Assembly (NCBI GenBank): GCA_946406435.1
Contig: CAMJKP010000019.1
Coordinates: 1 to 52,959, forward strand
Source of the DNA: an uncultured Prevotellaceae bacterium
Lineage (GTDB): Bacteria > Bacteroidota > Bacteroidia > Bacteroidales > Bacteroidaceae
DNA length: 52,959 bases
Direction of reading: 5' to 3'
Shown here piece after piece: positions 36,978 through 52,452 of the stretch; within the stretch, counting starts at the first letter, position 1; the number at the start of each line of letters is the position of its first letter. The translations under genes were made by a program, and so were the position numbers. The notes under the pieces are model-generated. The model did not search any database. It saw only the letters and a program-made list of their open reading frames with translations, and was not told the DNA's origin.

Positions 36978-37781
36978 TTATTCGGTTTTACTATCAATTA
37001 CGGTAATCTCATGGATGGTGAGATTACCGTTTTCGTCTATGGTAATCGGTGCTGAGAAATCGGGCATATCGTCATAAAGAAGCGCAAGTCCGGTGGTGAA
37101 CTTAACGCCAGGAACGAAGACAAGTTTAGGCTCGTCGCCACTAAGATCATAGGAAATCTGTTCACCTATCCACATAGGGCTCTCATCATCGAATCCGCCC
37201 ATATCAGTAATAGTGTTAGTGACTGTCTTCAACACTTTGTCTTTATCATAAATAGTCACATTCTCACCATCAATAGTATATCTTATGCGCTGGAGCAGTT
37301 CCTGTTGCACAGCATAGGGATTAATCTCATTTTTGATATAAGCCTTGCCATCCTCTTGAAAACGGATTTGATAGAGCTTTTCAACATTGACACCAGTACC
37401 TGACATAGCACAGCTTGTCAGCCAGAGATCACCTGTCTTGGCATTATACTTTGCCTGTGGCTGACGAGTGTTGATAATGTTGAGGAAATTGGTTGATACA
37501 GCACCTTTTGTCACAACGAAGCCGAAGCCTTCGGATGGTGTCTGATCAATCTCGTCGATAGAAAAAACAGCGACATTTGAAGCAGTATCGCTCATAACTT
37601 CATGATTATGAAGCTTTAACGCATTATCCATTGCTTTCTGGACATCGGCAGGGATGGAATCAGTCAGCAAAGGTGCATCCAATGTACCAGCCATTGGTTT
37701 TGTATCAATTGTAGTACTCTTACAGCTTGCCATCATAAGGCAAATGGCAAGGAATGAAATAAGGGGTTTAAGGGTATTCAT
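36978..37781 (-). CDS. Lipoprotein, tentatively DUF4738-like
   Basis: This 267-residue lipoprotein (ICLMMASC-KST) continues with VAVFSIDEIDQTPSEGFGFVVTKGAVSTNFLNI and LWLTSCAMSGTGVNVEKLYQIRF. The overall pattern recalls DUF4738 lipoproteins of Prevotella, but I hold this loosely. It is the last gene of the - strand SusCD cluster, 98 bases after the TolB-like gene, and convergent with the VOC lipoprotein gene (15 bases between stops). The gap upstream holds GGTTAGAGG-type repeats. A hairpin at 37000-37030 lies within its 3' coding end. Confidence 0.65.
   Translation of the reverse strand: MNTLKPLISFLAICLMMASCKSTTIDTKPMAGTLDAPLLTDSIPADVQKAMDNALKLHNHEVMSDTASNVAVFSIDEIDQTPSEGFGFVVTKGAVSTNFLNIINTRQPQAKYNAKTGDLWLTSCAMSGTGVNVEKLYQIRFQEDGKAYIKNEINPYAVQQELLQRIRYTIDGENVTIYDKDKVLKTVTNTITDMGGFDDESPMWIGEQISYDLSGDEPKLVFVPGVKFTTGLALLYDDMPDFSAPITIDENGNLTIHEITVIDSKTE
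37000..37034 (+). terminator. Possible + strand terminator inside the convergent gene
   Basis: A perfect 11-bp stem ACGGTAATCTC / GAGATTACCGT with a nine-base loop and a short T run lies about 37 bases after the VOC lipoprotein stop, within the last codons of the opposing lipoprotein gene. The T run is weak. Confidence 0.5.
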
Positions 37782-37879: not shown

Positions 37880-39355
37880 TTACTTACTACGCACACCTAT
37901 TTTCTGGCGAGACTCATCGTTTATGATTTGACTGGCCTCATGACCGTCGAAATCTGTCGGAGCAATGATGAAATCGGGCACGTTGAATGAAAGGAAACGC
38001 TCACGATAGAAACGGCGAGGGTTACGCTGTGGCAGCATAAACGCCTTGCTGACATTGCCCTTTGCATCGACATGACAGAAATAAGGGCGTGTGAAGAGTC
38101 CATCGTCACGACGGGAGCTAAGCACCAGCCAACGTGAGTTTGTACTCCAGTTATGGAACGATTCCGTATCTTTTGAATTAGCCTTGGTCATAGGGCTACT
38201 CTCGCCTGTGGAGAGGTCGAGGAGATAGAGGTCGGCCTCGTGATGCCAGATGCTGAACTGCCCATAGTCAGAGAGCGTGTAGCAAAGGAAACGTCCGTCA
38301 TAAGAAGGACGAGGGAAAGATACCGACTTATTCTGAGCCTCAACATTTATGATAGTGTCTATACGGTTGCCGAAATCACCCGTTTCAGGATTAAAATCGA
38401 TACGGCAGAGGTTGTATCGGATAGAATCAAGGCTGTGACTACCTTCTGGGAGTGCTTTGGCGGCACAGAAATAGAGCGAACGGCCATCGGCAGAGAAAAC
38501 GGGGTAGGTCTCATAGACAGACTCCTGCTTGAGAAGCGGAGAAAGTATCAGCTCATTCTTGTTGACATCATAGACCTGAAGGTCGGAAGCTTCATCAAAC
38601 ACCTCAACACGGTTGCTGTCGGCAGCATGGAATAGCTGCTTCGTGGAATTGGTTGAATAAGCGACATATCGGCCAGAAGGATGCCAGTAAGGATATACGC
38701 ATAAGCCGAGCGTCTGGTCGGTCTTGGTATCATAAGCGGCCATAGGACCGTTGTTCTGACACAGTAATGTAGCACCATGTTCTCCACGAATATGAAGGCT
38801 CATATCAGCAGGATTGCCACGATTGAAGCTATGGCAGTTGACGCAACCCTCGAACTGGGTATTCTCAATCAGCGGACGCTCATCGAATGATGAGAGGTCG
38901 CGCTCATAGATGCCCATTTTACTCCACACCTCGTAACCTGGCTCAATAAGACGGTAGCAGATTCCGTAATCGATACTATCAGGGCTGACATATATCGAGA
39001 AAGGGTTGTACGTGTGCCAGCCATCTTCATACTTGGCTGAAACGGTAACAGAGAGGGAGTCGCCACGATTCTTGTCAAGCAGTTCTTGCCAGTCGTCGAT
39101 ATCGAAATCTACTGATTCCTCGCCCTGGCTGTGCAGGGTATTTCCGTTGCGGTCAGTAATGACAGCATCAACAAGCAGAAACGTCTCGTCATCCATGCCA
39201 AAATTGAGAGGTGCAATATTGACTGGAATGGTGACGCCGAGGTAGTCGGGGTAGATATGTGGATGATTCTTCTCCTGCTTTGCATCGCTGACCGTCTCAG
39301 TTGTGCAGGCGGTTAGCAATAGAACGGAGAGAAGTGAGAAAAATATCTTTTTCAT
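37880..39355 (-). CDS. TolB-like beta-propeller lipoprotein with CxxCH motif (first of two paralogues)
   Basis: This 491-residue lipoprotein (VLLLTAC, Cys17) has an N-terminal beta domain containing IYPDYLGVTIPVNIAPLNF (34-52). CVNCHSF (Cys171, Cys174, His175) follows, then WD40-like/TolB blades (YPYWHPSGRYVAYSTNS, YPVFSADGRSLYFC, FPRPSYDGRFLCY, WSTNSRWLVLSSRRDDGLFTRPYF). CxxCH is the covalent haem c attachment motif; relatives are sometimes annotated as TolB-like or cytochrome c biogenesis proteins, but haem binding is not established. Its ATG overlaps the stop of the DUF6057 gene (TAATG), implying translational coupling. A likely partner is that membrane protein. It is paralogous to the 40865-42373 product. 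Confidence 0.82.
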   Translation of the reverse strand: MKKIFFSLLSVLLLTACTTETVSDAKQEKNHPHIYPDYLGVTIPVNIAPLNFGMDDETFLLVDAVITDRNGNTLHSQGEESVDFDIDDWQELLDKNRGDSLSVTVSAKYEDGWHTYNPFSIYVSPDSIDYGICYRLIEPGYEVWSKMGIYERDLSSFDERPLIENTQFEGCVNCHSFNRGNPADMSLHIRGEHGATLLCQNNGPMAAYDTKTDQTLGLCVYPYWHPSGRYVAYSTNSTKQLFHAADSNRVEVFDEASDLQVYDVNKNELILSPLLKQESVYETYPVFSADGRSLYFCAAKALPEGSHSLDSIRYNLCRIDFNPETGDFGNRIDTIINVEAQNKSVSFPRPSYDGRFLCYTLSDYGQFSIWHHEADLYLLDLSTGESSPMTKANSKDTESFHNWSTNSRWLVLSSRRDDGLFTRPYFCHVDAKGNVSKAFMLPQRNPRRFYRERFLSFNVPDFIIAPTDFDGHEASQIINDESRQKIGVRSK

Positions 39356-40839
39356 TACTTTTTGGTTGTCTGAACGAATTTGGCATAGCGGTCGCGGTCG
39401 CCAGTAAGCATATAGTAGGCAATCAGGTATTCGTATGCCAGACGATTATCCCTGTTCTTATAATAAAGGCTTTCGAGCATCTCGGGAGTCACATGGTCGC
39501 TGAAGTAAAAGTCGTCGTTGTATGCGCACTTACGGAGATGTCCGTATTCAGGATGATTGGCTATCGCCTTTTCATCGCCCAAGAGAGATATTGTCTCGTT
39601 TGCCCAATCGCTATAGAAGAGGGTTTTCTGAAGGGCAGAGAGATATTTGCGAGCCACTTCATAATCGCCGTTTATGAGGTTTGTCTGTGCCAAGCGCTTG
39701 TAGCATCGGGCACTTTTCTGGAAGTCAAGAATTGCCTCCTGAGCCTCGAAAACCGTTCGCTGGGCAACATTTATCATGCCCAACTGATAGAAAGCCTCGG
39801 CGGTAGGCAGAGGACTGGTAGCATCACGATCAACATCAGGCAGAAGACCAGCGATACCGTTCTGACGGTATTCTCCTCCATGCTCAGCGAGCATACCACG
39901 CATCGCCAAGGCAAGATTCTGTACCGTAACTCCAATCTGGTTGTTTGGCTTCTCTTCGTTGATAGTCTCAATTATGCGGTTCCATTGCTGGTGACGCGCC
40001 ATGAAGTCATATCCCATCACCTTCTCAGCCTTGAAATTTGCATTTTTCCAGACGAAACACCCCATACAAACAGCCACAATCACAAAGGAAATTAGAGTTG
40101 ATGGGATGGAGGATGGAGTAAATAGTTTTGGGATGCTCATTAAGAGCGCAAGGAAGAATATTGACAGAGCCGCAATCCAAAGCAGAGTTGGGAATTCCGT
40201 TGGATAGCGATGGTAATGTATGCCATACCATAAGTGGCTGGCTGGTACTGAGATATAATATGCCAATATCACGAGCATTATAGCCAACAGTACGAATACG
40301 CCATAATACCATTTCTGGGACTTAAAGCGCAGAGCCTGTAAAAGAAAGAAAATGATGCAGATAGGACCTGCCATCCAATAAAGAACAGGAATAGCGACAA
40401 CGAGCAGAACATCTCGTAACCTACCAGATGTTTTATCAAAGCCCCATGAAGCGAGAAGGGTTATTAATACTGCCCATACACCACCTAACAATGCATTCTC
40501 ATCAAGTAAGAAGAGCATAAGCAGACATGAAGGTACATAGCTCAGACCATAGAAGCGTCCCAAGTTGACTAAATGGAGAGTCAGAAGCTGAATTATTGAG
40601 AGCAGAAGTCCGATGATAAATGCCCCACCCCACGCATACAGGAAGAACTGAGTGCAGAAACGTCCCAATAGGTCGGATATACCACCTGGCAGCTTTACTA
40701 TATCCCAAACATAATTACTGTCGAAGAGGAAAAGCTGGAACTGCTCCTGATAATGAAGATGATGCGGATATGCCAATCCGAAGAAGAGGATAACCGCAAC
40801 ACCGAAAATGAGATTATAAATATAATGAATATTCTTCAT
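39355..40839 (-). CDS. DUF6057-like polytopic membrane protein (second of two)
   Basis: This 494-residue protein has about ten hydrophobic segments (residues 1-280, beginning MKNIHYIYNLIFGVAVILFFGL). A helical, TPR-like extramembrane domain follows, with ARHQQWNRIIETINEEKPNNQIG, CYKRLAQTNLINGDYEVARKYLSALQKT and YEYLIAYYMLTGDRDRYAKFVQ. This layout fits DUF6057. No catalytic residues are apparent. ATG 40839 is chosen over 40896, whose extension overlaps the upstream gene's stop region. Its stop overlaps the start of the TolB-like gene, so the two products are probably made in step and may form a complex in which the TPR domain meets the propeller. Confidence 0.78.
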   Translation of the reverse strand: MKNIHYIYNLIFGVAVILFFGLAYPHHLHYQEQFQLFLFDSNYVWDIVKLPGGISDLLGRFCTQFFLYAWGGAFIIGLLLSIIQLLTLHLVNLGRFYGLSYVPSCLLMLFLLDENALLGGVWAVLITLLASWGFDKTSGRLRDVLLVVAIPVLYWMAGPICIIFFLLQALRFKSQKWYYGVFVLLAIMLVILAYYISVPASHLWYGIHYHRYPTEFPTLLWIAALSIFFLALLMSIPKLFTPSSIPSTLISFVIVAVCMGCFVWKNANFKAEKVMGYDFMARHQQWNRIIETINEEKPNNQIGVTVQNLALAMRGMLAEHGGEYRQNGIAGLLPDVDRDATSPLPTAEAFYQLGMINVAQRTVFEAQEAILDFQKSARCYKRLAQTNLINGDYEVARKYLSALQKTLFYSDWANETISLLGDEKAIANHPEYGHLRKCAYNDDFYFSDHVTPEMLESLYYKNRDNRLAYEYLIAYYMLTGDRDRYAKFVQTTKK

Positions 40840-40864
40840 TAAAATAGCAGGAAGAAAGAGATTA

Positions 40865-42373
40865 TTATTTATCAAACACCTTGCTGAACTCGTCAACGCT
40901 GATCTTGACAGGCTCTACCATAAACTCCGGACGGTTGTAACACTTCAGACGGAAAGAATTATGCTCAGGATCTTCCTGAGGAAGGAGGAATGCCTTTTCT
41001 ACCTTACCGTTCTTGAAATATGAGAAATACAGACGGCTGAAGTTACCATCACCACGACGACTTGAACACATAATCCAGCGTCCGTTGCTTGACCATGTAG
41101 GATAACTATCAGCAAAACCGTTACTATTCAGTCCTGTTAGGTCAATGGCAGTTGAATCCTTGACCAATGGCAGAGTCTTTCCTTCAAGTGGCAAACATAC
41201 GATATCGCCATCTCTATGCCTGATATGGAAACAACCATACTGTCCTTCTGCAAATAGAATATAACGTCCATCAGGACTGATACGTGGCAATGTAACACTC
41301 CGATCCTTCGATGCGGCATCATATACAAGTTCCTCTTCACCGAACTTGTGGGTTGCAAGATCAAACGAACGTCTGTACATGTTGTACTGCACCTTCTTAT
41401 AAGTGGTTCTGATATCCTTGTCGCGCATCTCTTCAGGAAGTGGAACAGACTTACAGTAATAGAGATACTTACCATCAGGTGACCATGTAGGATACACCTC
41501 CAAAAGATCTGGATCAGCACTTACTACGCTCACTGAATCTGTTGTAACATCATAGAGTATCAGGTCACTTGCAAGATCATAAACCTCAAGTTTATTAGGG
41601 TTTGATGTATGGAATGCCTGACGAGTTTGGTTTGTTGAGAATGCTATTATCTTGGCAGTAGGATGCCAAGAAGGATATACGCCCGATGATATGGTATAAT
41701 CTCGTTTCAAATTTACTCTCGAAACCTTTCCATCATTCACAATGACAGTACCACTATTTGACAGGCGCACATGGAAGATCATATTGTCCGTCTTATAGTT
41801 CTGGTAGCTATGGCAGTTAATACACTGACCAATCTTTCTGTCATTACTTGTAATCTCATTATTGAAGATCTGCGACTCTTCAAAATTAGTGACATTGCGC
41901 TGTGCAATCTCCATATAACTCCATGCCACATAAGTTGGATCGATGAGTCGGTATGAAACATAGTCATCGATAGGCTCTTCAGCAACACGAATCTCAAAAG
42001 AACTGTACGCCAGCCAATTACCATCTTTCTTTCCCCAGACCTCAACCTTCATGCTCTTGCCTTTTGAAGCCTCGAGCATATCGTGCCACTCATCTTCAGG
42101 AATCTGTACCTTGACACCACTACCGTAAGTCTGCTGCTTGCCATCAGGCATGGTAAAGCGTGCCACACACTCCTCGAATTCTGAAGCAGGAAGCATAAAG
42201 TTAAGCGGAGCAATATTGCAAGGTACGGTCACATTGCAATAATCCGGATATATTGCTGGCAGATTCTTAGTCTCCTTACTTGAAGAAGGGATATCTGGAT
42301 GAGACTGACATGCAGTCAATAACAATATAGCAACTGATAGCAGCTGTAAATATATGTTGAAATATCGTTTCAT
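40865..42373 (-). CDS. TolB-like beta-propeller lipoprotein with CxxCH motif (second paralogue)
   Basis: This 502-residue lipoprotein (LLLTAC, Cys22) shares the layout of the 37880-39355 product: IYPDYCNVTVPCNIAPLNF at 41-59, CINCHSY (Cys184, Cys187, His188), blades YPSWHPTAKIIAFSTNQ, YPTWSPDGKYLYYC and LPRISPDGRYILF, and the ending WSSNGRWIMCSSRRGDGNFSRLYFSYF. Conservation of CxxCH in both diverged copies argues that it is functional. It follows the first DUF6057 gene by 35 bases, repeating the gene order membrane protein then propeller. Candidate roles are haem/redox partner, metal site or structural disulfide. Confidence 0.82.
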   Translation of the reverse strand: MKRYFNIYLQLLSVAILLLTACQSHPDIPSSSKETKNLPAIYPDYCNVTVPCNIAPLNFMLPASEFEECVARFTMPDGKQQTYGSGVKVQIPEDEWHDMLEASKGKSMKVEVWGKKDGNWLAYSSFEIRVAEEPIDDYVSYRLIDPTYVAWSYMEIAQRNVTNFEESQIFNNEITSNDRKIGQCINCHSYQNYKTDNMIFHVRLSNSGTVIVNDGKVSRVNLKRDYTISSGVYPSWHPTAKIIAFSTNQTRQAFHTSNPNKLEVYDLASDLILYDVTTDSVSVVSADPDLLEVYPTWSPDGKYLYYCKSVPLPEEMRDKDIRTTYKKVQYNMYRRSFDLATHKFGEEELVYDAASKDRSVTLPRISPDGRYILFAEGQYGCFHIRHRDGDIVCLPLEGKTLPLVKDSTAIDLTGLNSNGFADSYPTWSSNGRWIMCSSRRGDGNFSRLYFSYFKNGKVEKAFLLPQEDPEHNSFRLKCYNRPEFMVEPVKISVDEFSKVFDK

Positions 42374-42408
42374 TATTATACTAAATAGTGAGAATATTCA
42401 GAATTGAC

Positions 42409-44148
42409 CTAAAGGAATTTTCTTGCGAAGATGTTATAAAACCAATATGTGTCGCCAAACTCGCTTCGCATTTTCTCCGCAGTTGTCTCTCTATCCAAAC
42501 CACTATTCACGTGGTTTTCAAGGATTGTCCAGAATTTCTTGTAACGGTCATAAGTCACTTGTCCTACAGGCAACATGACACGTTTTTCTTCTGGAGCCTT
42601 CTCCATATACATAATGTATGCTTCTTGGGCATGAAGAGGGAATTCTTCACCTTGGTGACATTTAAGGAAACTACGAAGTGATTTCCAGAATCGGCGAGAG
42701 TCACAACGCATCATAGAATAGAACAATGCCTGTTCAGAAGCCAGCTTGCTGTCCGATTCCGTCCAGAGACTGATGGAATTCATGATGTATCTATCACTAT
42801 TCTCTACACCTGTGAGTTCATCAGAATAGCATTTCTGCAACTCGCGAACCTTCTTAGAGACAGGAGATGGTTTCCAATCTGCATAATATGGATGCCCATG
42901 AATTAATTTCGTAAAGCGCTCAACAAGTTCCTTTTCTCCATTAGCATAGGCAGAACGGCAAAGCATCCTAAGATAGAATGGCGAGAATCCTGCTTGCTCA
43001 GCACACTCAAAGGTAAGACGGAATCCTTCATTTATCATACCATAGTTATAATATGAAACTGATGACGCAATCTCAAGGAAACTGATATGAACAGAATCAG
43101 GATTATAGATAGGAATGAAATCATTACCCATCTTAAACGAACGGTCAAGGATTCCACCTTCATTCATCAAGGCTACGTTCTTAAGCATAAGCATTGAGAT
43201 TGTAGGCTTTGAAGTCTCCGAATAAATCTCTAATACCTCCTTCCAGTTATCTGCTTCAGCAGAACGAGCCATACGCATCTCATTGATGTAGTTCTTATCC
43301 TGATACATAAGTGACCAAGTGAAGGCAATGCCTGCTATCACACACAATACAGGAACAAACCATTTATCAAGATAGCGAGAAAGAGTTACATACAGTATTG
43401 AAAGTACACCTATTATCCAAAATGGGATAGAGAGGTAATCACTCTTATCAGATGCTGTCTCAAATTTAGGCAGACCTGCAAAAATAACATCATCAAACTT
43501 TATATTTGAATAAAGAAGAGCACGCCATACAACAGCTGCAGAAACAACAAGAAGCAAACCAAGAAACTCTCGCCATGTAAGTTTGTCTGACAATGCCAGA
43601 CATAGAATGAAAAGTAAGGCAAACCAACCAAGTATAGGATATAGGCAGAAACCTAAGATATACCAGAAAACATGCCATTTACGTGATGTAGAACGAGCTC
43701 CCCACAACAAAGTAAGCATCAAAAGGTAACCTACTGACTGCGAGAACCAGTATCCTCGGATCATAAATTCGTATATCCAATATCCCAGATCAACCAATGA
43801 TGTGAGAAGACAGGCTATAGGCAGAAGCATTAGTGCAAAGGCACTCCCCTTCAAGCGGAAAGCCTTTATACCAACAAAGAATATGAGCGCCCATATAGCC
43901 ACCAGCAGACTTGCACCAACAAAAGGCTTATAAAGGAATTGAGTTAACCAAGCTGCTACATACTGTATCAATCCAAAAGGCTTCATCATCAAAGTGCTGA
44001 AAAATGAAGATCCGATAAGGAATTCAGAACGATCTTGTGCAGTATAGAGTACTACCCTATTGATATACAACACGTATATAGCAAATAGGAAAAAAATCAG
44101 AAGACTTACGAAGAGCAGTGACTTGCTTACAATACTTTTTGTATTCAT
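42409..44148 (-). CDS. DUF6057-like polytopic membrane protein (first of two)
   Basis: This 579-residue protein has about ten TM segments (residues 1-290, from MNTKSIVSKSLLFVSLLIFFLF) and a long helical domain with TPR-like spacing (NWKEVLEIYSETSKPTISMLMLKNVAL ... YYNYGMINEGFRLTFECAEQAG ... YLRMLCRSAYANGEKELVERF). It is longer than its paralogue at 39355-40839. ATG 44148 is chosen over an upstream start because the interval to 44193 is a terminator hairpin. It starts the second half of the cluster, just after that hairpin. Confidence 0.78.
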   Translation of the reverse strand: MNTKSIVSKSLLFVSLLIFFLFAIYVLYINRVVLYTAQDRSEFLIGSSFFSTLMMKPFGLIQYVAAWLTQFLYKPFVGASLLVAIWALIFFVGIKAFRLKGSAFALMLLPIACLLTSLVDLGYWIYEFMIRGYWFSQSVGYLLMLTLLWGARSTSRKWHVFWYILGFCLYPILGWFALLFILCLALSDKLTWREFLGLLLVVSAAVVWRALLYSNIKFDDVIFAGLPKFETASDKSDYLSIPFWIIGVLSILYVTLSRYLDKWFVPVLCVIAGIAFTWSLMYQDKNYINEMRMARSAEADNWKEVLEIYSETSKPTISMLMLKNVALMNEGGILDRSFKMGNDFIPIYNPDSVHISFLEIASSVSYYNYGMINEGFRLTFECAEQAGFSPFYLRMLCRSAYANGEKELVERFTKLIHGHPYYADWKPSPVSKKVRELQKCYSDELTGVENSDRYIMNSISLWTESDSKLASEQALFYSMMRCDSRRFWKSLRSFLKCHQGEEFPLHAQEAYIMYMEKAPEEKRVMLPVGQVTYDRYKKFWTILENHVNSGLDRETTAEKMRSEFGDTYWFYNIFARKFL

Positions 44149-44156
44149 CTTTATAC

Positions 44157-44190
44157 TATAAAAAGGCTGGCTCATTTGACTGAGCCAGCC
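44157..44190 (-). terminator. Intra-operon terminator or attenuator
   Basis: A perfect 10-bp stem GGCTGGCTCA / TGAGCCAGCC with a six-base loop is followed on the - strand by five T residues. It lies 30 bases after the surface lipoprotein gene and 9 bases before the DUF6057 start, so read-through would set the expression ratio. Confidence 0.82.
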
Positions 44191-44219
44191 CAATTTTAAT
44201 TTATATTACCCAAGGAGTA

Positions 44220-45008
44220 TTATTCCTCGTAGTAAACATTGTGGATAGTACAGCTACCAGAAGTAATCATAAGGTCAAGATCCTTACCACCAGCACCCTG
44301 AGCACAATCATTATAGATAGCATCTGTGAGTGGGAGCTCCCACTGACCGTTAGTGAACTTAACGTCCTTATTATCATCATAACGAGCAGACCACCAACCA
44401 TTCATGATACGACCAGCACAATCGTCTGTAGCATCTGTAATGTCGAAGATAAGAGTCTTTTTGCCCTTATAAACATCATCCTTAATGAATGGGAAATGCT
44501 TACCCTCATTAGCACTGAAACGCATTTCTGCAGCGTCCCAAGCAGCAGGTGAGAAAGGCTCACCCTCAAAACCAATCAAATGATGATGAGGATTGTTTGG
44601 ATCTGGCTTACCATAGATATAGTAACGCTCAAGCTCCTGAGTAATAACATCACAAGAAACAGGGAAATCTGAAGTAACAACTGTACCATCAGCACAGAGA
44701 CCTGTGAGAGTTACAGTGTAACTACCAATTTTCAACTTTTTCCATGCATAATTACCAAACATATCCTTACCAGCAACATCAGGCTTACTGTTATCGGTAA
44801 TAGTCCACTTAGCATTAACAGGAGCTGAAGTTGAACAGGAAATTACATTACCATTATTTCCGTTCGCGTCCTTTTCAACCGTTACAGTTGACATAGACTT
44901 AAGCTCATCAGCTGTGATATGATCACCCAAACTAAAATCCTCAGATACAGGATCACAAGCTACGAGCGAGCATATTACTGTGGCAAGTGCAAATAATATC
45001 TTTTTCAT
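44220..45008 (-). CDS. Surface lipoprotein, SusE/SGBP-like position
   Basis: This 262-residue lipoprotein (ICSLVAC-DPV) has an N-terminal Ig/PKD-like domain (about 50-125: VISCSTSAPVNAKWTITDNS ... YTVTLTGLCADGTVV). A C-terminal beta domain (about 130-262) has YIYGKPDPNNPHHHLIGFEGE and TLIFDITDATDDCAGRIMNGWW and ends SGSCTIHNVYYEE. Domain order and position directly after SusD fit surface cargo-binding lipoproteins of SusCD loci. Ligand unknown. It is 21 bases downstream of susD; the next gene is beyond a terminator-like hairpin. Confidence 0.78.
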   Translation of the reverse strand: MKKILFALATVICSLVACDPVSEDFSLGDHITADELKSMSTVTVEKDANGNNGNVISCSTSAPVNAKWTITDNSKPDVAGKDMFGNYAWKKLKIGSYTVTLTGLCADGTVVTSDFPVSCDVITQELERYYIYGKPDPNNPHHHLIGFEGEPFSPAAWDAAEMRFSANEGKHFPFIKDDVYKGKKTLIFDITDATDDCAGRIMNGWWSARYDDNKDVKFTNGQWELPLTDAIYNDCAQGAGGKDLDLMITSGSCTIHNVYYEE

Positions 45009-45029
45009 AATAATATACTTGTTTTAATA

Positions 45030-46952
45030 TTAGTAAAGTGTCTTATATACGGCTTCTGTGTTAGAAGGCTCCCAACCTGGGTTCTGCTCAAGCTTACCAT
45101 TCATAAGAGTAATCTGAGACTGTGGCTTAGCCAAGAAACCATTTGTATCCTCATAACGCTTTGTCCAAGAACATGTCATGTGCTTCATAGCGCGCTGGTT
45201 AGGACCATTACAATACATCATCTTACCCTCCTGAGCCTGAAGAGCCTTTGAAGCATAACCACCCTTAGTGTCCTTACCAGTCCAACGACGCATATCATTG
45301 AAACGGAGTCCCTCAAATGCAAACTCCCAACGACGCTCGTCCTGAACTGCCTTCAAAGAATATGGAGTCTCAGGAACACCTGCACGCTTCTGAACCTCGT
45401 TCATGTACTTAGCATCACCTGTGAGCTCTGTGAGCATGAGGAGAATGTCAGAATAACGCATGAGGTAGAAGTCCTCAAAGTGGCTACCCTGAAGGGCATT
45501 GTCACCGAGAGTATTTGTCCAACCTTCTGGAGCTGCTGTGTACCACCAAGAGCGGTCACCAGTCTCCTTATCAGTAGTAACACCATTATACTTCTTAACA
45601 CCAAAGCCTGATGCCTCACAGCAGTCCTTTACGAATTCGTAGTCAATCTCCTTGTTTGCTGTAATACCATCAATCAAAGAACCGAGCTTACGGATGTCCT
45701 TATACTGCTTTGTCGCATCACCACCAGCTCTTTCAGCATTTGTCCAGTCATCCCAGATGTTACAAGATGGAGTACCCTGTCCCCAACCCTGAGTGAATGG
45801 GTATGTGAAGTTACGGTCACCATTATGACCATTCACACGGAGTGCCCAGAAACAAGAGAGATAGTTACAGTACATACGGTCTTGAGAGTAAGGACCAGCA
45901 TCACCAGTAATACCCCAACGTGAAGCATTAAGGAACTGAACCTGGAATACCTCCTCAGGGTTACCGTTACCATTACCTGGCATGTCAAAACAATCCTCCA
46001 AAGCCATATCAGCAATGAAATCATACTTATGACCCTGACGTACACCGTTGATCACGTCCTGAGTCTCCTGCCAAACATAGCTGTTAGAATACTGCCAGAG
46101 TGAACGATAGTCCTTAAGAAGCTTATAACCGCCATTAGAAACGATGTCCTTAAGACCATTTATAACATCATCTTTAGAAAGAGAACCTCCGTCACAACCT
46201 TCCTGCGCAATAAGAGTCACTGGCTCAACAGAACCTGTAGCAAGTTCACCTACATGCTTGTAGAAGCCAGCCCAGAACATATATGCACGAGCAAGGAAAC
46301 CTGCAGCAACATACTTGTTAGCATGACCATCACCAGCAGCAGCCTTATCACCCATAAGATTCATACCAGATACGAAGTCTGAGAAAATATGTGGATAAAT
46401 AACTGCCTCGGCATCAGCCTGCTGCTCCATTTCAGGAGTGATAAGAGTAGATGTAATCAAAGGAACATCACCATAGAGCTGAGTGAGCCAGAGATTATAG
46501 AGACCACGCATGAAATAAGCCTCACCAAGAAGCTGATTACGCTTAGTGTTGTTGCCCTTCCAATCTACGTTATCAATAGTCTCAATCATGTTGTTTGCAC
46601 GGTTGATACCACCATAGAGAAGAATGAATGGAGTCTCATATTGGTTTTCATCCATACGGACAAGATGATGAAGAGACTTAACCTTATTATCCTGAAGACC
46701 ACCAGAGCCATAGCAGTTGTCAGACATAACTTCCCACCACCACCAAATATTCATATTATCTGCATCACCACCACCCATAGTGTTCATGATACTGTATGTA
46801 GCAGTATTAAGTGCTTCTACATCAGCAATTTTACCAGGGAAAGTGGCCTGGGTTGCGTCAGTAACACGTGGATCGGTATCCAACATGTCTTCGCAAGATG
46901 TAAGCACTGCTGCAGAGAAAAGAGCAAGTGCTGATACTATATATTTTTTCAT
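45030..46952 (-). CDS. SusD/RagB-family outer-membrane lipoprotein
   Basis: This 640-residue lipoprotein (AAVLTSC-EDM) has the SusD start (MLDTDPRVTDATQATFPGKIADVEALNTATYSIMN), the helical TPR core (LLGEAYFMRGLYNLWLTQLYGDVPLITSTL) and the C-terminal signature LKAVQDERRWEFAFEGLRFNDMRRW. It is longer than the SusD at 10466, with a bigger cargo-facing insertion (about 240-480) rich in aromatic residues. It pairs with the SusC encoded 31 bases upstream. Confidence 0.93.
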   Translation of the reverse strand: MKKYIVSALALFSAAVLTSCEDMLDTDPRVTDATQATFPGKIADVEALNTATYSIMNTMGGGDADNMNIWWWWEVMSDNCYGSGGLQDNKVKSLHHLVRMDENQYETPFILLYGGINRANNMIETIDNVDWKGNNTKRNQLLGEAYFMRGLYNLWLTQLYGDVPLITSTLITPEMEQQADAEAVIYPHIFSDFVSGMNLMGDKAAAGDGHANKYVAAGFLARAYMFWAGFYKHVGELATGSVEPVTLIAQEGCDGGSLSKDDVINGLKDIVSNGGYKLLKDYRSLWQYSNSYVWQETQDVINGVRQGHKYDFIADMALEDCFDMPGNGNGNPEEVFQVQFLNASRWGITGDAGPYSQDRMYCNYLSCFWALRVNGHNGDRNFTYPFTQGWGQGTPSCNIWDDWTNAERAGGDATKQYKDIRKLGSLIDGITANKEIDYEFVKDCCEASGFGVKKYNGVTTDKETGDRSWWYTAAPEGWTNTLGDNALQGSHFEDFYLMRYSDILLMLTELTGDAKYMNEVQKRAGVPETPYSLKAVQDERRWEFAFEGLRFNDMRRWTGKDTKGGYASKALQAQEGKMMYCNGPNQRAMKHMTCSWTKRYEDTNGFLAKPQSQITLMNGKLEQNPGWEPSNTEAVYKTLY

Positions 46953-46983
46953 ATTTATAATATTGTCAATTAGAAATTGTCAA

Positions 46984-49900
46984 TTAGAACTTAATACTTG
47001 CACCTACGAGGAATGTACGAGCTGGTGGGTAGAGACCGAGGTCAATACCTGATGCCCACTTATCTGCACCACCTGCTGAACCAACCTCAGGATCGAGGCC
47101 TGTATAACCAGTGAATGTGTAGAGGTTCTGAGCCTGAACATAGAAACGAAGCTGCTGCAATGGGCAAGACTTCCAGATATTCTTAAAGTCATAACCGAGA
47201 GTAACAGTCTTGATCTTGAAGTAGTCAGCATCCTCCATATAACGTGTAGATACCCAAACAGTGTTAGGATGACCCTGATCCATGATACGTGGATACTCGT
47301 TTGAAGTACCTTCACCATGCCAACGGTTGAAGATAGAAGTATCATAGTTCTGATAAGGAGCATCACCGAATGAACGGTAAGAACGCATAATCTGCATACC
47401 GAATGCACCAGCACCGTTTACAGCGAAGTCAAAGCCCTTCCAAGAGAAACCGAGGTTTACACCAAGAGTGACGTCTGGGTTAGGATTACCAATCTCATGC
47501 TTATCTGAGTTAGGACCATCACTATATTCGATCTTACCATCACCATTAAAGTCGTCCCAAATTGGGTCACCAGGCATTGCGTTATCGAGAACACCCTGAC
47601 CAGCTGCACGAGCTGCATCAATCTGTGCCTGATTCTGCCAGATACCGCTGTAAGACATACCACGGAAGTAACCGATTGGCTTACCTACCTCAGCACGATA
47701 GATGTAGTCAGTACCCTGAGAGAGAACAGAAGGTGTACCATTGATGTAACCATTCTCGTTAGCGATACGTGTTACCTCATTCTTATTTGTAGCAACATTT
47801 ACACCTACGTTGTACTTGAAGTCACTACCAATCTGATCATTCCAAGTGAGAGCAAGCTCGACACCTGTGTTCTCAACGTCACCACCATTGATGTATGCAG
47901 GGTTAGTACCCTGAATAGCAATACGTGGACCTACAACGAGCCAGTCCTTTGTGGTCTTCTTATACCAGTCGAAGTTTACACCGAGACGACTGCCAAGGAA
48001 GCGAGCATCGAAACCAAGGTCAATCTGCTCAGAAGTTTCCCAAGTAACATCTGGGTTAGGCACGATGTCAGCATAAGCACCAGTATTAGGAGTACCAGAG
48101 ATAGAAGACTCCATGCTGCTGTTGAACTTATAACCGCTATCACCATTAGAACCTGACATTCTGATTGTAGCAAGGCCCTGATACTTCTTGATTCGGTTGT
48201 TACCGTTCTGACCCCAAGATGCACGAATCTTAAAGTAGTCCATCCAAGACTTTGTACTTTCCATGAAATTTTCCTCAGACACTACCCAACCTGCAGATAC
48301 TGATGGGAATGTACCCCAACGATGACCTCTTTCAAAGACTGAAGAACCGTCAGTACGAAGAATTACAGTTGCCATATACTTCTCATTGTAGTCCCAGTTG
48401 ATACGGCCGAAGAAAGAAGCAAGATACTCTTCATCGTCAGGATTAGCAGAAAGAGTAGCATGTGCAAGGTCTGTGGTGAAGTTCTTGAGCCAAGCAGAAT
48501 TCCAGTCCCTCAAAGTAGCCTTCTGCTGATCATCACCAACAGTATTTGAGCCACTGAGATTTGCACTATATGCAGTACTCTGGAAAGACTGACCAACCAA
48601 TGCATTAAACGTGTTCTGACCAAGCTTGAAGTCATAAGAGATAGTATTTTCAACAGAGAAGTTTGAGTTGAAATAAGCACTCTGGTTTACACTGTAAGTT
48701 GTCACTGCATTCTGGAGATCTGGCACACGTGGAGTACCGAAGTTACGATATGTACCTGAGTTCCAACCGTAGTTGAACTGAGAACGCCACTTCAAGCCCT
48801 TAATAGGCTGAACTACCAAGAATGCAGTAGCACTTACGTTGAGGTTACGGCTCTCTGCCAAAGAGTTCCAACCACCCTTTGTGATGTTCTCCCATGGATT
48901 AGAGAACCAGAATTTATTCCAGCCACCTTCGTTAGGTATATAGTTTGTACCATCCTCATTGAACTGAGGTATGAGTGGGTTAGTCTGGAGAAGTGAGTGG
49001 ATATAGCTCCAGTACATACCTTCCTCAGCGAGGTCATGGCTCTTGTTGTAACCGAGAGAGAAGTTCTGACCGATTGTAATAGCATCGAAGTCCTTAGCCT
49101 TAAGGAGAACATGGTCACTGTTAAGGCGGATTGTATGACGCTGATAGTAAGAAGCCTGATCACCACCCATGATACCTTCGTTATCAGTATAGGTATAAGA
49201 CATAGCGAACTTAGACTTGTCTGAACCACCAGTCAATGTTACAGAATGATTCTGCTGAGGAGCATTCTCATTCATGAAAGCACCCCACCAGTCAGTACCT
49301 TCCCAACCAGCAGCAACCTTATCAAGGATGTCCTGAGGAACGTAACCATTATAGTCAAACTTCTTACCAGTTGTATTGAAGGTGAACTCATCAATAATTG
49401 CCAGGTACTGCTGAGCATTGAGGAGCTGTGGACGCTTGTAGCTGTTTGACCAACCCATAGATCCATTATAAGAAAGTTCAACCTTACCTTCCTTACCCTG
49501 TCTTGTTGTAACAAGGATAACGCCGTTAGCAGCACGAGAACCATAGATAGCTGCAGAAGCAGCATCCTTAAGTACGTCGATACTCTCAATATCGTTAGGG
49601 TTGATACCATCAATATTATCAGCGACTACGCCATCAACAACATAGAGAGGCTTTGAATCACCGATAGTACCGACACCACGGATAGCAACCTTAAAGCCCT
49701 TACCTGGCTGTGAAGATGACTGAGTGATCTGCACACCTGGAGATGAAGATGCCATAGCCTCCAACGCATTTGTTGTATTGAGCTTAGCAATCTCATCACC
49801 CTTTACCTGTACAGTAGCACCAGTAACGAGTTTCTTCTTCTGGGTACCATAACCCACAACAACTACATCATTAAGGGTTGTGTTGTCTTCCATGAGCACA

Positions 49901-50193
49901 ACGTCAACAGAATTCTCACCTCTCAGACGTATCTGCTTTGTCAGATAACCAACATAGCTAATACTAAGGATAGAACCTGATGGCGCATCAATTGAATACT
50001 GTCCCTTGCTGTCTGTAACAGTACCACCTCTAGCGCCTAACACCTTTACAGTTGCTCCGATGATAGCTTCGCCATTCTGGTCTCTTACGATACCTTTTAC
50101 AGTCTGTGCTTGAGCGAGGACTGCAAAGAAGCAAAGGACGGAAAGGAGGAGAAGTTTTCTGCTCCAAGTTCCCAACTTTTCAAGTTTTCGCAT
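46984..50193 (-). CDS. SusC/RagA-family TonB-linked outer-membrane transporter
   Basis: This 1069-residue protein has a signal peptide (VLCFFAVLAQA-QTV), a carboxypeptidase-regulatory-like domain (TVKGIVRDQNGEAIIGATVKV ... LSISYVGYLTK), LNDVVVVGYGTQKKK, a plug (FKVAIRGVGTIGDSKPLYVVDGV ... IDVLKDAASAAIYGSRAANGVILVTT) and a barrel ending RTFLVGASIKF. First gene of the - strand cluster. SusCD pairs without linked CAZymes can import peptides (RagAB of Porphyromonas gingivalis is one), which is the simplest guess here. Its promoter lies at 50265-50296. Confidence 0.94.
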   Translation of the reverse strand: MRKLEKLGTWSRKLLLLSVLCFFAVLAQAQTVKGIVRDQNGEAIIGATVKVLGARGGTVTDSKGQYSIDAPSGSILSISYVGYLTKQIRLRGENSVDVVLMEDNTTLNDVVVVGYGTQKKKLVTGATVQVKGDEIAKLNTTNALEAMASSSPGVQITQSSSQPGKGFKVAIRGVGTIGDSKPLYVVDGVVADNIDGINPNDIESIDVLKDAASAAIYGSRAANGVILVTTRQGKEGKVELSYNGSMGWSNSYKRPQLLNAQQYLAIIDEFTFNTTGKKFDYNGYVPQDILDKVAAGWEGTDWWGAFMNENAPQQNHSVTLTGGSDKSKFAMSYTYTDNEGIMGGDQASYYQRHTIRLNSDHVLLKAKDFDAITIGQNFSLGYNKSHDLAEEGMYWSYIHSLLQTNPLIPQFNEDGTNYIPNEGGWNKFWFSNPWENITKGGWNSLAESRNLNVSATAFLVVQPIKGLKWRSQFNYGWNSGTYRNFGTPRVPDLQNAVTTYSVNQSAYFNSNFSVENTISYDFKLGQNTFNALVGQSFQSTAYSANLSGSNTVGDDQQKATLRDWNSAWLKNFTTDLAHATLSANPDDEEYLASFFGRINWDYNEKYMATVILRTDGSSVFERGHRWGTFPSVSAGWVVSEENFMESTKSWMDYFKIRASWGQNGNNRIKKYQGLATIRMSGSNGDSGYKFNSSMESSISGTPNTGAYADIVPNPDVTWETSEQIDLGFDARFLGSRLGVNFDWYKKTTKDWLVVGPRIAIQGTNPAYINGGDVENTGVELALTWNDQIGSDFKYNVGVNVATNKNEVTRIANENGYINGTPSVLSQGTDYIYRAEVGKPIGYFRGMSYSGIWQNQAQIDAARAAGQGVLDNAMPGDPIWDDFNGDGKIEYSDGPNSDKHEIGNPNPDVTLGVNLGFSWKGFDFAVNGAGAFGMQIMRSYRSFGDAPYQNYDTSIFNRWHGEGTSNEYPRIMDQGHPNTVWVSTRYMEDADYFKIKTVTLGYDFKNIWKSCPLQQLRFYVQAQNLYTFTGYTGLDPEVGSAGGADKWASGIDLGLYPPARTFLVGASIKF

Positions 50194-50264
50194 TTTTCGA
50201 TAAGTTTAAGTTAATAATTTGTTTTTTTTAATTTTACTTAGGTTGATCTACTAAAAACTGGATA

Positions 50265-50296
50265 CAAAAGTACTATTTTAATATATTTTACACAAA
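50265..50296 (-). promoter_or_regulatory. Promoter of the SusC-led cluster
   Basis: On the - strand, TTTG (50296-50293) and TACTTTTG (50272-50265) are exactly 20 bases apart. The leader is about 65 nt. It is probably the main promoter for all seven or eight genes down to 36978. Confidence 0.8.
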
Positions 50297-50950
50297 TTTA
50301 GCCGTTACATATACAACAACAATTTGTTACATTTTTTCATTTACAACACCCTAAATTTACGAAACGCGCGTTTTTTTTGGAATTTTGACACATACACATT
50401 TGTTACATTTGTCTTTTAAATATCTTCCAACAACCTAGCATTCAATATTTTAAAAAATACGCACTTGGCATGTAACACAAGTTCAAACGAATCAATATTA
50501 ATTTCCGATGTATCTTAGGACAAAACCGAGCAAAATTAACAATTTTGAACATAAAACTGATAAAAAGTGAATATTTAACACTTCAACAGAGCGCTACATT
50601 TGGTGTTTGGACTAACGCTCAAAGCACTATCTTGTTCATGTTTTTTTATCCACAATCTTCAAATTCATCCAAAAGCACCAACTTTTTGACTTTTCCGCCG
50701 CGTGAGAATCGAATATTTTCAAGCAGCCTTACAATTGGTCGGGAATATTAAATTCTCAGGAAGGAGATTTCAAGAGTTTTTTGACTCATATTTCCAATAT
50801 TCCAAACATCTATCGTCAAGGAGTATCTTATCGTTATAGCCAAGCTCTAAGAATATACGAAGCGAAAAGGAAACGGATTTATTTGTTTATATGGAAATTC
50901 ATCGACTCACCTTATATTAAAAGTATAACGACGTATTCTTTCCCAAACAA
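50297..50950. other. AT-rich non-coding region upstream of the SusC promoter
   Basis: About 650 bases without a convincing gene. Two short + strand frames (50545-50751 and 50781-50966) lack start signals and recognisable content. No sigma/anti-sigma or hybrid two-component regulator accompanies the cluster here, so regulation of SusC must come from elsewhere or from this AT-rich stretch. Confidence 0.5.
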
Positions 50951-50990
50951 AAAAGAAAAAGCGTAAGTCCTAAAAAAGACCTACGCTTTT
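50951..50990 (-). terminator. Terminator of tRNA-His
   Basis: On the - strand, AAAGCGTAGGTC pairs with GACTTACGCTTT and is followed by TTCTTTTTTG, directly downstream of the tRNA 3' end. Confidence 0.82.
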
Positions 50991-50993
50991 AAG

Positions 50994-51068
50994 GGTGGAG
51001 GGTGGGGCTCGAACCCACGACATTCAGAACCACAATCTGACGCTCTAACCAACTGAACTACATCCACC
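50994..51068 (-). tRNA. tRNA-His (anticodon GTG)
   Basis: The reverse strand folds as a 75-base tRNA. Acceptor strand GTGGATG has an extra G at -1 (paired to discriminator C), the hallmark of tRNA-His. The D-arm is GTTCAGTTGGTTAGAGC, anticodon stem TCAGA/TCTGA with loop TTGTGGT (anticodon GTG), T-arm GTGGGTTCGAGCCCCAC and 3' acceptor CCTCCAC. One acceptor pair (T6-C) is mismatched. CCA is not encoded. Confidence 0.95.
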
Positions 51069-51186
51069 ATTTGGTTATATTTGCCATTGATTTCTCAATT
51101 GCGAGTGCAAAGGTAGTAATTATTTTTGAAACAAAAGAATGATACAATGAAAAAATCATTCTTATTTCCATGCGGATTGATTTATA

Positions 51187-52452
51187 TCAATCCATTCTAT
51201 CTCGATAATCCTCATAGGAATACTCACGTAGGGTTACAAGCTCGTTATCCTCACGCAAAAGACAGATTGCAGGATGACTTATACCATTGAAGGTACATGT
51301 CTTTACAGTGGTGTAATGAAGCATATCCTCAAAAATGATGGTCTCACCTATCTGAAGCTCGTGATCAAAACGCCACGCTGACATCCAGTCGCCAGAGAGA
51401 CAGCTGTTACCGCCGAGACGGTAGAGGAAGGAACTGCGGCCTCTTGCACATACTCCGATGTTATCAACATCGGACTTTCCCTCACCCTTCTCCGTAGGAA
51501 GGGAGCCGCTAACGCCACCAATGTAGTCACCCTCTAAACGATCCAAAGCATTCTCTATAGTTTCTGCCCCACGAACAGCAGGATGATAAGGCATTTCAAG
51601 GCAGTCAGGCATGTGGCAAGTGAAGCTGACATCAAGAATAGCCGTACGAATGCCGTGATTCTCTACTATATCAACAACATGAGAGACTAAAGGACCAGTC
51701 TGCCAACCAAAGGCAGAACCTGGTTCAAGAATGACCTTGAGGTTTGGATAACGCTTACGGAAATCAGTAAGGATAGAGACAAGTAGCTCAACATCATAAT
51801 CAGCACGGGTCATAAGATGTCCGCCGCCGAAGTTTATCCATTCTAACTGCGGAAACCACTTACTGAACTTTTCCTCTATATGTACGAGAGTGCGTTGGAA
51901 GACGTCAGAACCGCTCTCACAATGACAATGGCAATGAAAGCCCGTTATATCCTCAGGAAGCGTCTCAGGAAGGTCTTCTGCAAGAACGCCAAAACGCGTT
52001 CCAGGAGCACAAGGGTTATAAATATCAGTACCCACCTCGGAATACTCAGGATTTACACGTACACCAAGCTTTATAGCCGAATTAGCAGCCTTTGCCCGAT
52101 TATGATAGCGCTCATACTGCGAAAGCGAGTTGAATGTGAGATGACTCGACATCCGCGCAATATCATCAATCTCATAGTCCGTATATGCAGGAGAGAATGT
52201 ATGCGCAGGTGCGCCAAACTCCTCATACGCCAAGCGAGCCTCAGAAAGACTTGAAGCCGTAGTACTTGATATATACTCACGGAAGATCGGGAAGGTCTTC
52301 CAAAGGGCATACGCCTTGAATGCAAGGATTATCTCAACACCTGAGCGCTCAGCCACATCACGAATGAGGGCAAGGTTTCTGCGCAAACGCTTCTCCTCCA
52401 GCACGTATGCCGGATGAGTAAGTTCCTCGTATGTTTCAGGATTAACTTTCAT
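51187..52452 (-). CDS. nspC: Carboxynorspermidine decarboxylase
   Basis: This 421-residue PLP-dependent enzyme of the alanine-racemase-like fold III group decarboxylates carboxynorspermidine/carboxyspermidine in the alternative polyamine pathway. The PLP lysine lies in ILAFKAYALWKTF (Lys46), with HCHCHCESG (173-181), INFGGGH (206-212), LEPGSAFGW (242-250), the TCHMPDCLEMPYHP block (278-291) and GGNSCLSGDW (347-356). It is about 40 residues longer than typical family members. Much of the excess (about 317-339, SLPTEKGEGKSDVDNIGVCA and following) is encoded by an in-frame palindromic repeat. The first-step partner (carboxynorspermidine dehydrogenase) is not in the window. The gap to the upstream phosphorylase gene holds a repeat hairpin. 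Confidence 0.95.
   Translation of the reverse strand: MKVNPETYEELTHPAYVLEEKRLRRNLALIRDVAERSGVEIILAFKAYALWKTFPIFREYISSTTASSLSEARLAYEEFGAPAHTFSPAYTDYEIDDIARMSSHLTFNSLSQYERYHNRAKAANSAIKLGVRVNPEYSEVGTDIYNPCAPGTRFGVLAEDLPETLPEDITGFHCHCHCESGSDVFQRTLVHIEEKFSKWFPQLEWINFGGGHLMTRADYDVELLVSILTDFRKRYPNLKVILEPGSAFGWQTGPLVSHVVDIVENHGIRTAILDVSFTCHMPDCLEMPYHPAVRGAETIENALDRLEGDYIGGVSGSLPTEKGEGKSDVDNIGVCARGRSSFLYRLGGNSCLSGDWMSAWRFDHELQIGETIIFEDMLHYTTVKTCTFNGISHPAICLLREDNELVTLREYSYEDYRDRMD
51440..51506 (-). repeat. Palindrome-cored repeat inside nspC
   Basis: The core 51447-51477 is the exact reverse complement of 5955-5985 over 31 bases, with flanking CCCTTCTCCGTAGGAAGGG. It is in frame and adds about 23 codons between the MPDCLEMPYHP and GGNSCLSGDW motifs, a stretch that is short in relatives. 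Confidence 0.88.

What the first reader, a model, noticed from the sequence alone, without database searches (positions are those of the whole stretch)
37880..50193. SusCD locus with duplicated DUF6057-membrane-protein / CxxCH-propeller-lipoprotein pairs and no degradative enzyme
The - strand cluster reads SusC, SusD, surface lipoprotein, then (DUF6057, TolB-like CxxCH lipoprotein) twice, then a lipoprotein. Gaps are 21-98 bases, with a TAATG overlap inside the second pair. Both propellers keep CVNCH/CINCH at equivalent positions and the block IYPDY-x2-VT-x-P-x-NIAPLNF, although the rest has diverged. Conserved CxxCH suggests haem c or another metal/redox site beside a polytopic membrane protein with a TPR-like domain. 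I know of no defined function for this arrangement. A simple model: SusCD imports a cargo (perhaps a peptide or haem-like molecule) that the propeller/DUF6057 complexes process, sense or pass across the inner membrane.
Basis: partly seen in the sequence, partly recalled or inferred. Interest (0 to 1): 0.78.

Follow-up and report, generated by a model that had tools for sequence, protein, structure and literature searches.

The report
Glycan importer with paired periplasmic propellers
A likely gut or rumen bacterium carries a nutrient-importer gene cluster with two copies of a widespread, unstudied protein pair, predicted to join an inner-membrane anchor to a periplasmic propeller whose invariant CxxCH motif likely binds a haem; it matters because about half of the sampled pairs sit beside such importers and their job is not known.

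Summary
A - strand cluster encodes SusC, SusD, a lipoprotein, then DUF6057/propeller twice; the seven genes recur together in 33 of 47 orthologous loci. DUF6057 and the CxxCH propeller (PROP) form a unit: strong matches to both mark the same 150 of 201 family genomes; PROP follows 71 of 80 sampled DUF6057 genes directly, and 76 of 76 PROPs there keep CxxCH. Partners diversify together. The two window pairs belong to old, separate lineages, so they are no local duplication. Predicted: PROP is a TolB-like propeller; DUF6057 is a polytopic protein with a TPR domain that charge bias places in the periplasm. PROP mostly lacks the acidic surface-export signal of SusD and LipA, so both partners probably meet in the periplasm. 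SusC is closest to dextran and levan SusCs, and some orthologous loci adjoin hemicellulose-type enzymes. Haem c is plausible (maturation gene in 138 of 150 PROP+ against 35 of 51 PROP- genomes) but unproven: the model puts CxxCH in a beta strand, and one near-complete genome lacks maturation genes yet keeps CxNCH. The role is inferred; the held paper library does not name DUF6057.

The parts
46984..50193 (-). SusC-type TonB-dependent outer-membrane transporter, 1069 aa
   Evidence: TIGR04056 855.4 bits; nearest solved chains 8aa4 (dextran utilisome) and 5t3r, whose sequence is shared with levan entry 8a9y
45030..46952 (-). SusD-type lipoprotein, 640 aa, acidic export-type signal CEDMLDTD, predicted surface-exposed
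   Evidence: PF07980 and PF14322; signal
44220..45008 (-). LipA, lipoprotein of 262 aa with acidic export-type signal CDPVSED, predicted surface-exposed; present in 43 of 47 orthologous loci
42409..44148 (-). DUF6057 protein a, 579 aa; my reading of the model is 9 TM segments, then a periplasmic TPR domain
   Evidence: PF19529 9.7e-58; AlphaFold2 mean pLDDT 93.2; charge bias
40865..42373 (-). PropA, TolB-like propeller lipoprotein with CINCH at residues 184-188
39355..40839 (-). DUF6057 protein b, 494 aa
   Evidence: PF19529 1.6e-140
37880..39355 (-). PropB, propeller lipoprotein with CVNCH; its start overlaps the stop of DUF6057 b (TAATG)
36978..37781 (-). LipB, lipoprotein after a 98-base gap; probably not part of the conserved unit
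   Evidence: no family above cut-off; no match in the 80 loci
50994..51067 (-). tRNA gene upstream of the cluster, context only
   Evidence: RF00005, 58.5 bits

Best explanation
The cluster encodes a SusC-SusD outer-membrane importer, likely for hemicellulose-type oligosaccharides, plus two members of a conserved two-protein module in which a predicted periplasm-facing TolB-like propeller lipoprotein likely docks on the predicted periplasmic TPR domain of its own inner-membrane DUF6057 partner and likely carries a covalent haem c at its invariant CxNCH motif. Shown here: the gene order, the DUF6057-PROP pairing, the partners' joint diversification, the invariant CxNCH and a second invariant histidine, the scarcity of the acidic export signal on PROP, and the charge pattern of DUF6057. 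Predicted: both folds and the shared compartment. Inferred only: docking, the haem, the cargo class and the role. The role I commit to is a cargo-specific periplasmic handling station: sugar delivered by SusC would be held on the propeller next to the DUF6057 anchor, where the cofactor makes or reads a redox change before the sugar moves on. Different SusCD importers sit beside different pairs, which fits cargo specificity.
For: All seven genes in 33 of 47 orthologous loci. DUF6057 below E 1e-20 and PROP below E 1e-100 mark the same 150 of 201 genomes (my transcription), and DUF6057 over its cut-off and full-length PROP mark the same 3 of 296 phylum-wide genomes. PROP is the very next gene on the same strand for 71 of 80 DUF6057 ORFs, within the next two for 74; 76 of 76 such PROPs over 350 aa have CxxCH. 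Distance matrices of 188 adjacent pairs correlate at 0.955, best of 500 permutations 0.052; swapping partners inside 54 multi-pair loci (110 pairs) gives at most 0.36 against 0.973. PROP is TolB-like. Loops I assigned to the cytoplasm hold 18.6-30.6 K+R per 100, periplasmic loops 4.3-6.6, which leaves the TPR domain (11.0) outside the cytoplasm. Two or more acidic residues after the lipobox Cys: SusD 41 of 45, LipA 43 of 47, PropA 0 of 46, PropB 5 of 78, PropC 0 of 31; such motifs mark surface lipoproteins in Bacteroides (PMC6222051, passages). CcsA-type gene over cut-off in 138 of 150 PROP+ and 35 of 51 PROP- genomes, Fisher p 1e-4; own genome has a fused ResB-CcsA gene. Glycan side; in 98 flanking ORFs scanned, of 103 eligible, GH43 in 7, GH3 in 5, GH10 in 2, GH97 in 2, GH115 in 1, GH127 in 1, esterase in 6, hybrid-regulator propeller in 4 (minimum counts, since only the 25 commonest families of each scan were shown).
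Against: The model places CxxCH inside strand 183-190, where Cys184 and Cys187 would face opposite ways; haem c or one shared metal needs a bulge there. G333 (99% complete) keeps CxNCH in its four propellers but shows no CcsA, ResB or CcsBA; eight less complete PROP+ genomes (69-87%) gave no CcsBA match either. The maturation-gene association is confounded by ancestry. At its curated cut-off DUF6057 is called in 177 of 201 genomes, 27 more than hold PROP; I set these weak hits aside without reading them all. Joint diversification can come from linkage alone. About half the DUF6057 genes have no SusC/SusD-like gene within seven genes, so the module cannot depend on SusCD. Most flanking ORFs matched none of the glycan families. 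No redox, sensing or transport activity was tested. PropA and PropC loci were fetched with patterns that include CxNCHS; only one search is free of that, and I picked its loci from listed, high-scoring DUF6057 hits.
Confidence: 0.35

Rival explanations
1. CxxCH binds a metal ion (zinc, copper or manganese) or is structural, and PROP is a metal-dependent periplasmic enzyme acting on imported oligosaccharide, as some propeller lyases are.
Against: Strand geometry in the model also argues against one metal holding both cysteines; no enzyme family above cut-off; the fold matches are to propellers of many functions.
Confidence: 0.3
2. DUF6057 is a GT-C-type transferase with a periplasmic TPR domain, in layout like the TMTC proteins (recalled), and PROP is its acceptor or adaptor; the pair modifies envelope proteins or glycans.
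Confidence: 0.15
3. PROP and DUF6057 are a TolB-like mechanical bridge between inner and outer membrane that couples to SusC, without cofactor chemistry.
For: PROP is closest in fold to TolB; DUF6057 is a membrane protein with a predicted periplasmic arm.
Against: TolB model scores 32.0 and 27.6 bits against a cut-off of 343.15; pairs occur without SusCD; does not explain invariant CxNCH.
Confidence: 0.12

Closest known systems
SusCD glycan-uptake systems and utilisomes (levan, dextran; PMC7618045, passages seen)
   Same: SusC and SusD in tandem, with an acidic-signal lipoprotein; SusC nearest to 8AA4, the dextran utilisome SusC
   Different: No glycoside hydrolase among the eight cluster proteins; two DUF6057-PROP pairs with predicted periplasmic orientation are added
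TolB of the Tol-Pal system
   Different: Lipoprotein with CxNCH in its first blade (my blade reading), far below the TolB family score, no Tol-Pal family among the ten neighbouring proteins scanned
DUF6057 (PF19529)
   Same: Both membrane proteins are clear members
   Different: Pfam gives the family no function and the held paper library does not mention it
Propeller enzymes with haem or metal (hydrazine synthase alpha 5c2v, cytochrome cd1, thiocyanate dehydrogenase)
   Different: From recall, the haems of hydrazine synthase lie outside its propeller; no sequence match to these at E 0.001
BtuG, propeller surface lipoprotein for B12 (PMC10404256, passages seen)
   Same: Propeller lipoprotein working with a TonB-dependent transporter
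   Different: BtuG is described as a surface lipoprotein; PROP mostly lacks the export signal and has a membrane-protein partner gene

Membership tests
SusCD nutrient-uptake locus | adjacent SusC and SusD genes | tested here: met
SusCD nutrient-uptake locus | degradative enzyme in the same cluster (usual in polysaccharide loci, not in all SusCD loci) | tested here: not met
   none of the eight cluster proteins; some orthologous loci have GH43, GH3, GH10 or esterase neighbours
DUF6057 (PF19529) | score above the curated cut-off of 29.8 bits | tested here: met
   470.1 and 196.8 bits
c-type cytochrome | CxxCH motif in an exported protein | tested here: met
   lipobox signal and CxNCH
c-type cytochrome | cytochrome c maturation genes in the genome | tested here: met
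   own fused ResB-CcsA gene; G333 is an exception elsewhere
c-type cytochrome | known cytochrome c domain | tested here: not met
   no cytochrome c family match in Pfam or NCBIfam
c-type cytochrome | both cysteines able to face one haem | tested here: inconclusive
c-type cytochrome | covalent haem present | not testable with these tools
   needs haem stain or mass spectrometry
TolB | TolB family score | tested here: not met
   32.0 and 27.6 bits against 343.15
GT-C glycosyltransferase | GT-C fold | tested here: inconclusive
GT-C glycosyltransferase | conserved acidic residue in the first periplasmic loop | tested here: not met
   none reaches 60% of 58 sequences at the columns of the window protein
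S9 peptidase | Peptidase_S9 catalytic domain | tested here: not met
   absent from both propellers

The most novel reading that the evidence does not exclude
PROP is the first haem c carried in a blade of a TolB-like propeller, and with DUF6057, a GT-C-like membrane protein with a periplasmic TPR arm, it forms a cargo-specific redox station that gut Bacteroidota have multiplied and attached to their glycan importers.
Probability: 0.28. Interest if true: 0.85.

Novelty: new variant of a known kind. Interest (0 to 1): 0.62.

Why it matters
Glycan uptake by Bacteroidota is usually described (from recall) as surface enzymes, SusCD and inner-membrane transporters. A pair found in 150 of 201 sampled genomes of this family, with up to nine DUF6057 matches per genome, an invariant cofactor-type motif, and SusCD nearby in about half the sampled loci, suggests a periplasmic step that has not been described in the papers I could search. 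If it carries haem c, it would be a new class of c-type haemoprotein in gut bacteria.

Tried and rejected
Recent tandem duplication of the pairs: rejected, PropA groups with PropC (local support 1.0, midpoint root) and excludes PropB; the DUF6057 tree agrees. Surface glycan-binding role for PROP: disfavoured by the missing acidic signal. Defence system: no PADLOC match for the two pairs. Peptidase role: S9 peptidases neighbour some pairs but PROP has no S9 catalytic domain. Among the 50 VIA rows shown, Pmt1, two ArnT entries and STT3B aligned over the transmembrane part; Foldseek also listed neurotensin receptors at E 0.1 and above with TM-scores near 0.15, and a profile search gave a neuropeptide receptor at E 0.011, all taken as chance. 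No sequence relative with a solved structure was found beyond weak PD40-type matches. Rfam gave only a tRNA above its cut-off in 50100-51300. Papers: DUF6057 gave no paper; PD40-containing protein with cytochrome, Bacteroides and SusC gave none; PD40 with SusC held 120 papers, and the 12 listed were unrelated; the Prevotella propeller search gave one paper on another subject, listing only; the B. thetaiotaomicron mucin locus paper PMC11992087 does not mention propeller, DUF6057 or PD40 in its main text (passages).

Choices and drops: DUF6057 matches of E 1e-3 to 1e-19 in 29 genomes were not counted as the family because those genomes lack PROP; I set this cut after seeing both tables, and 27 of these 29 pass the curated cut-off by the tally. 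Genomes that the outputs did not list (2, 6 and 14) were placed by elimination. G484 has no printed genus: one search counted it in genus g2 (maturation gene in 5 of 5 PROP+ and 2 of 7 PROP- genomes, p 0.028); without it the contrast is 5 of 5 against 2 of 6 and is weaker. Of 60 loci, 59 gave DUF6057 ORFs; in L249 a long antisense ORF hid the genes. Of the 80 ORFs one lay at an edge and five had no PROP within two genes on the same strand. Signal counts used unique N-termini with a lipobox match: 45 of 60 SusD, 47 of 47 LipA, 46 of 59 PropA, 78 of 107 PropB, 31 of 33 PropC ORFs. Of 576 relatives only the best 80 loci were returned. Of the 12 PROP+ genomes without a CcsA over cut-off, G306, G393 and G438 have ResB.
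Full report
The cluster. The finding is real. On the - strand the window encodes SusC, SusD, a lipoprotein (LipA), DUF6057 a, propeller A, DUF6057 b, propeller B and a last lipoprotein. The stop of DUF6057 b and the start of propeller B overlap as TAATG. None of the eight proteins matches an enzyme family above its cut-off. A tRNA gene lies upstream. Of the 80 best related loci returned by a scan with the propeller alignment (576 relatives found), 47 hold a propeller A at least 66% identical with its DUF6057; of these SusC is present in 43, SusD in 44, LipA in 43, DUF6057 b in 41, propeller B in 37, and all seven in 33. Some of these records are short contigs, so misses need not be losses. The last lipoprotein had no match there. 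The named records are Prevotella and other Bacteroidales, many from rumen or gut.

The pair is the unit. DUF6057 below E 1e-20 and the propeller family (PROP) below E 1e-100 mark the same 150 of 201 genomes sampled from the window's family; 51 have neither (transcription mine, unlisted genomes by elimination). The cut is mine: at the curated cut-off DUF6057 is called in 177 of 201, and the 27 extra genomes with weak matches hold no PROP. Across 296 genomes of the phylum both occur in the same 3. I then took 60 loci around DUF6057 hits, picked from the listed rows and so not selected for CxxCH. They hold 80 DUF6057 ORFs. PROP is the very next gene on the same strand for 71 and within the next two for 74; 76 of 76 PROPs over 350 residues carry CxxCH; a SusC- or SusD-like gene lies within seven genes of 41 of 80. 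In the earlier set 123 of 123 full-length PROPs carry CxxCH, but propellers A and C there were fetched by patterns that include it. Pairwise distances of 188 adjacent pairs correlate at 0.955 (best of 500 permutations 0.052). When partners are swapped inside 54 loci with more than one pair (110 pairs), the correlation falls from 0.973 to a mean of 0.20 and at most 0.36. Linkage alone could also give this. Window pairs A and B fall in different old lineages, A together with the third pair of this genome, which sits beside a purL-like gene without SusCD (the purL label is recalled).

The CxxCH motif. C184, N186, C187, H188 and H201 are invariant in 42 aligned PROPs; M198 is kept in 37. By my reading of the blade repeats the motif replaces the YPxWHP strand of the next blade. 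A CcsA-type gene exceeds its cut-off in 138 of 150 PROP+ and 35 of 51 PROP- genomes. In genomes at least 95% complete the numbers are 51 of 53 and 25 of 33; one of the two misses, G306, has ResB near a contig's listed fragment. The other, G333, shows no CcsA, ResB or CcsBA, yet its four propellers keep CxNCH. Eight less complete PROP+ genomes gave no CcsBA match either. This genome has its own ResB-CcsA fusion, beside an imelysin and a di-haem oxidoreductase, so those genes do not need PROP as their reason. The model places the motif in a beta strand, which argues against haem c and against one metal on both cysteines alike, unless the strand is bulged. I hold haem c at a little under even odds.

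Cargo and role. SusC is nearest to 8AA4 (dextran) and the levan entries, ahead of RagA and BT_2264. Of 98 flanking ORFs scanned from the 47 loci (103 eligible: over 250 residues, within three genes), GH43 is found in 7, GH3 in 5, GH10 in 2, GH97 in 2, GH115 in 1, GH127 in 1, esterases in 6 and hybrid-regulator propellers in 4 (minimum counts, as the outputs show 25 of 66 and 25 of 54 families). Most flanking ORFs matched none of these. Plant hemicellulose is therefore the likeliest cargo for this SusCD type, by inference. Other DUF6057-PROP pairs sit with other SusC- and SusD-like genes, with S9 peptidases or alone, in several loci with a small DUF4369 lipoprotein. I propose a cargo-specific periplasmic handling station with a redox cofactor; this step is inference.

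Known or new. The locus is a SusCD uptake locus with an added module. DUF6057 is not named in the held paper library, and searches for PD40 proteins with SusC or for Prevotella propellers gave nothing relevant in what was listed. That covers open-licence PubMed Central papers only.

Noticed in passing
window 50994-51067 (-): A tRNA gene lies upstream of the SusC gene; tRNA genes are common landing sites for mobile DNA (recalled).
   Followed up: no
L007 8123-11714: Third DUF6057-propeller pair of this genome, beside purL-like and ammonium-transporter-like genes (labels recalled), without SusCD.
   Followed up: partly
L166 928-9300: Run of genes with an imelysin, a di-haem oxidoreductase, a lipoprotein with one CxxCH and a fused ResB-CcsA protein.
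   Followed up: partly
L085 11494-15225 and L239 5744 onward: Some DUF6057 genes are followed by a DPPIV-like S9 peptidase rather than a CxxCH propeller, which may be a second kind of partner.
   Followed up: partly
L142 11087-11653, L152 8418-8984, L153 11550-12218: Small DUF4369 proteins recur near DUF6057 in several loci, a possible further component not seen in the window cluster.
   Followed up: partly
L008 9151-10434: A 427-residue protein gives weak DUF6057 hits (33 and 30.1 bits) and lies near genes that resemble methylmalonyl-CoA mutase (label recalled); weak hits in other genomes may be its kin.
   Followed up: no
window 22423-24516 (+): C10 peptidase with a Spi-type inhibitor domain.
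   Followed up: no
L081: A Bacteroidales-type pair in a MAG labelled Roseburia, probably contamination or a wrong label.
   Followed up: no
L252 and L255: Propeller and DUF6057 neighbours on opposite strands, against the usual order.
   Followed up: no
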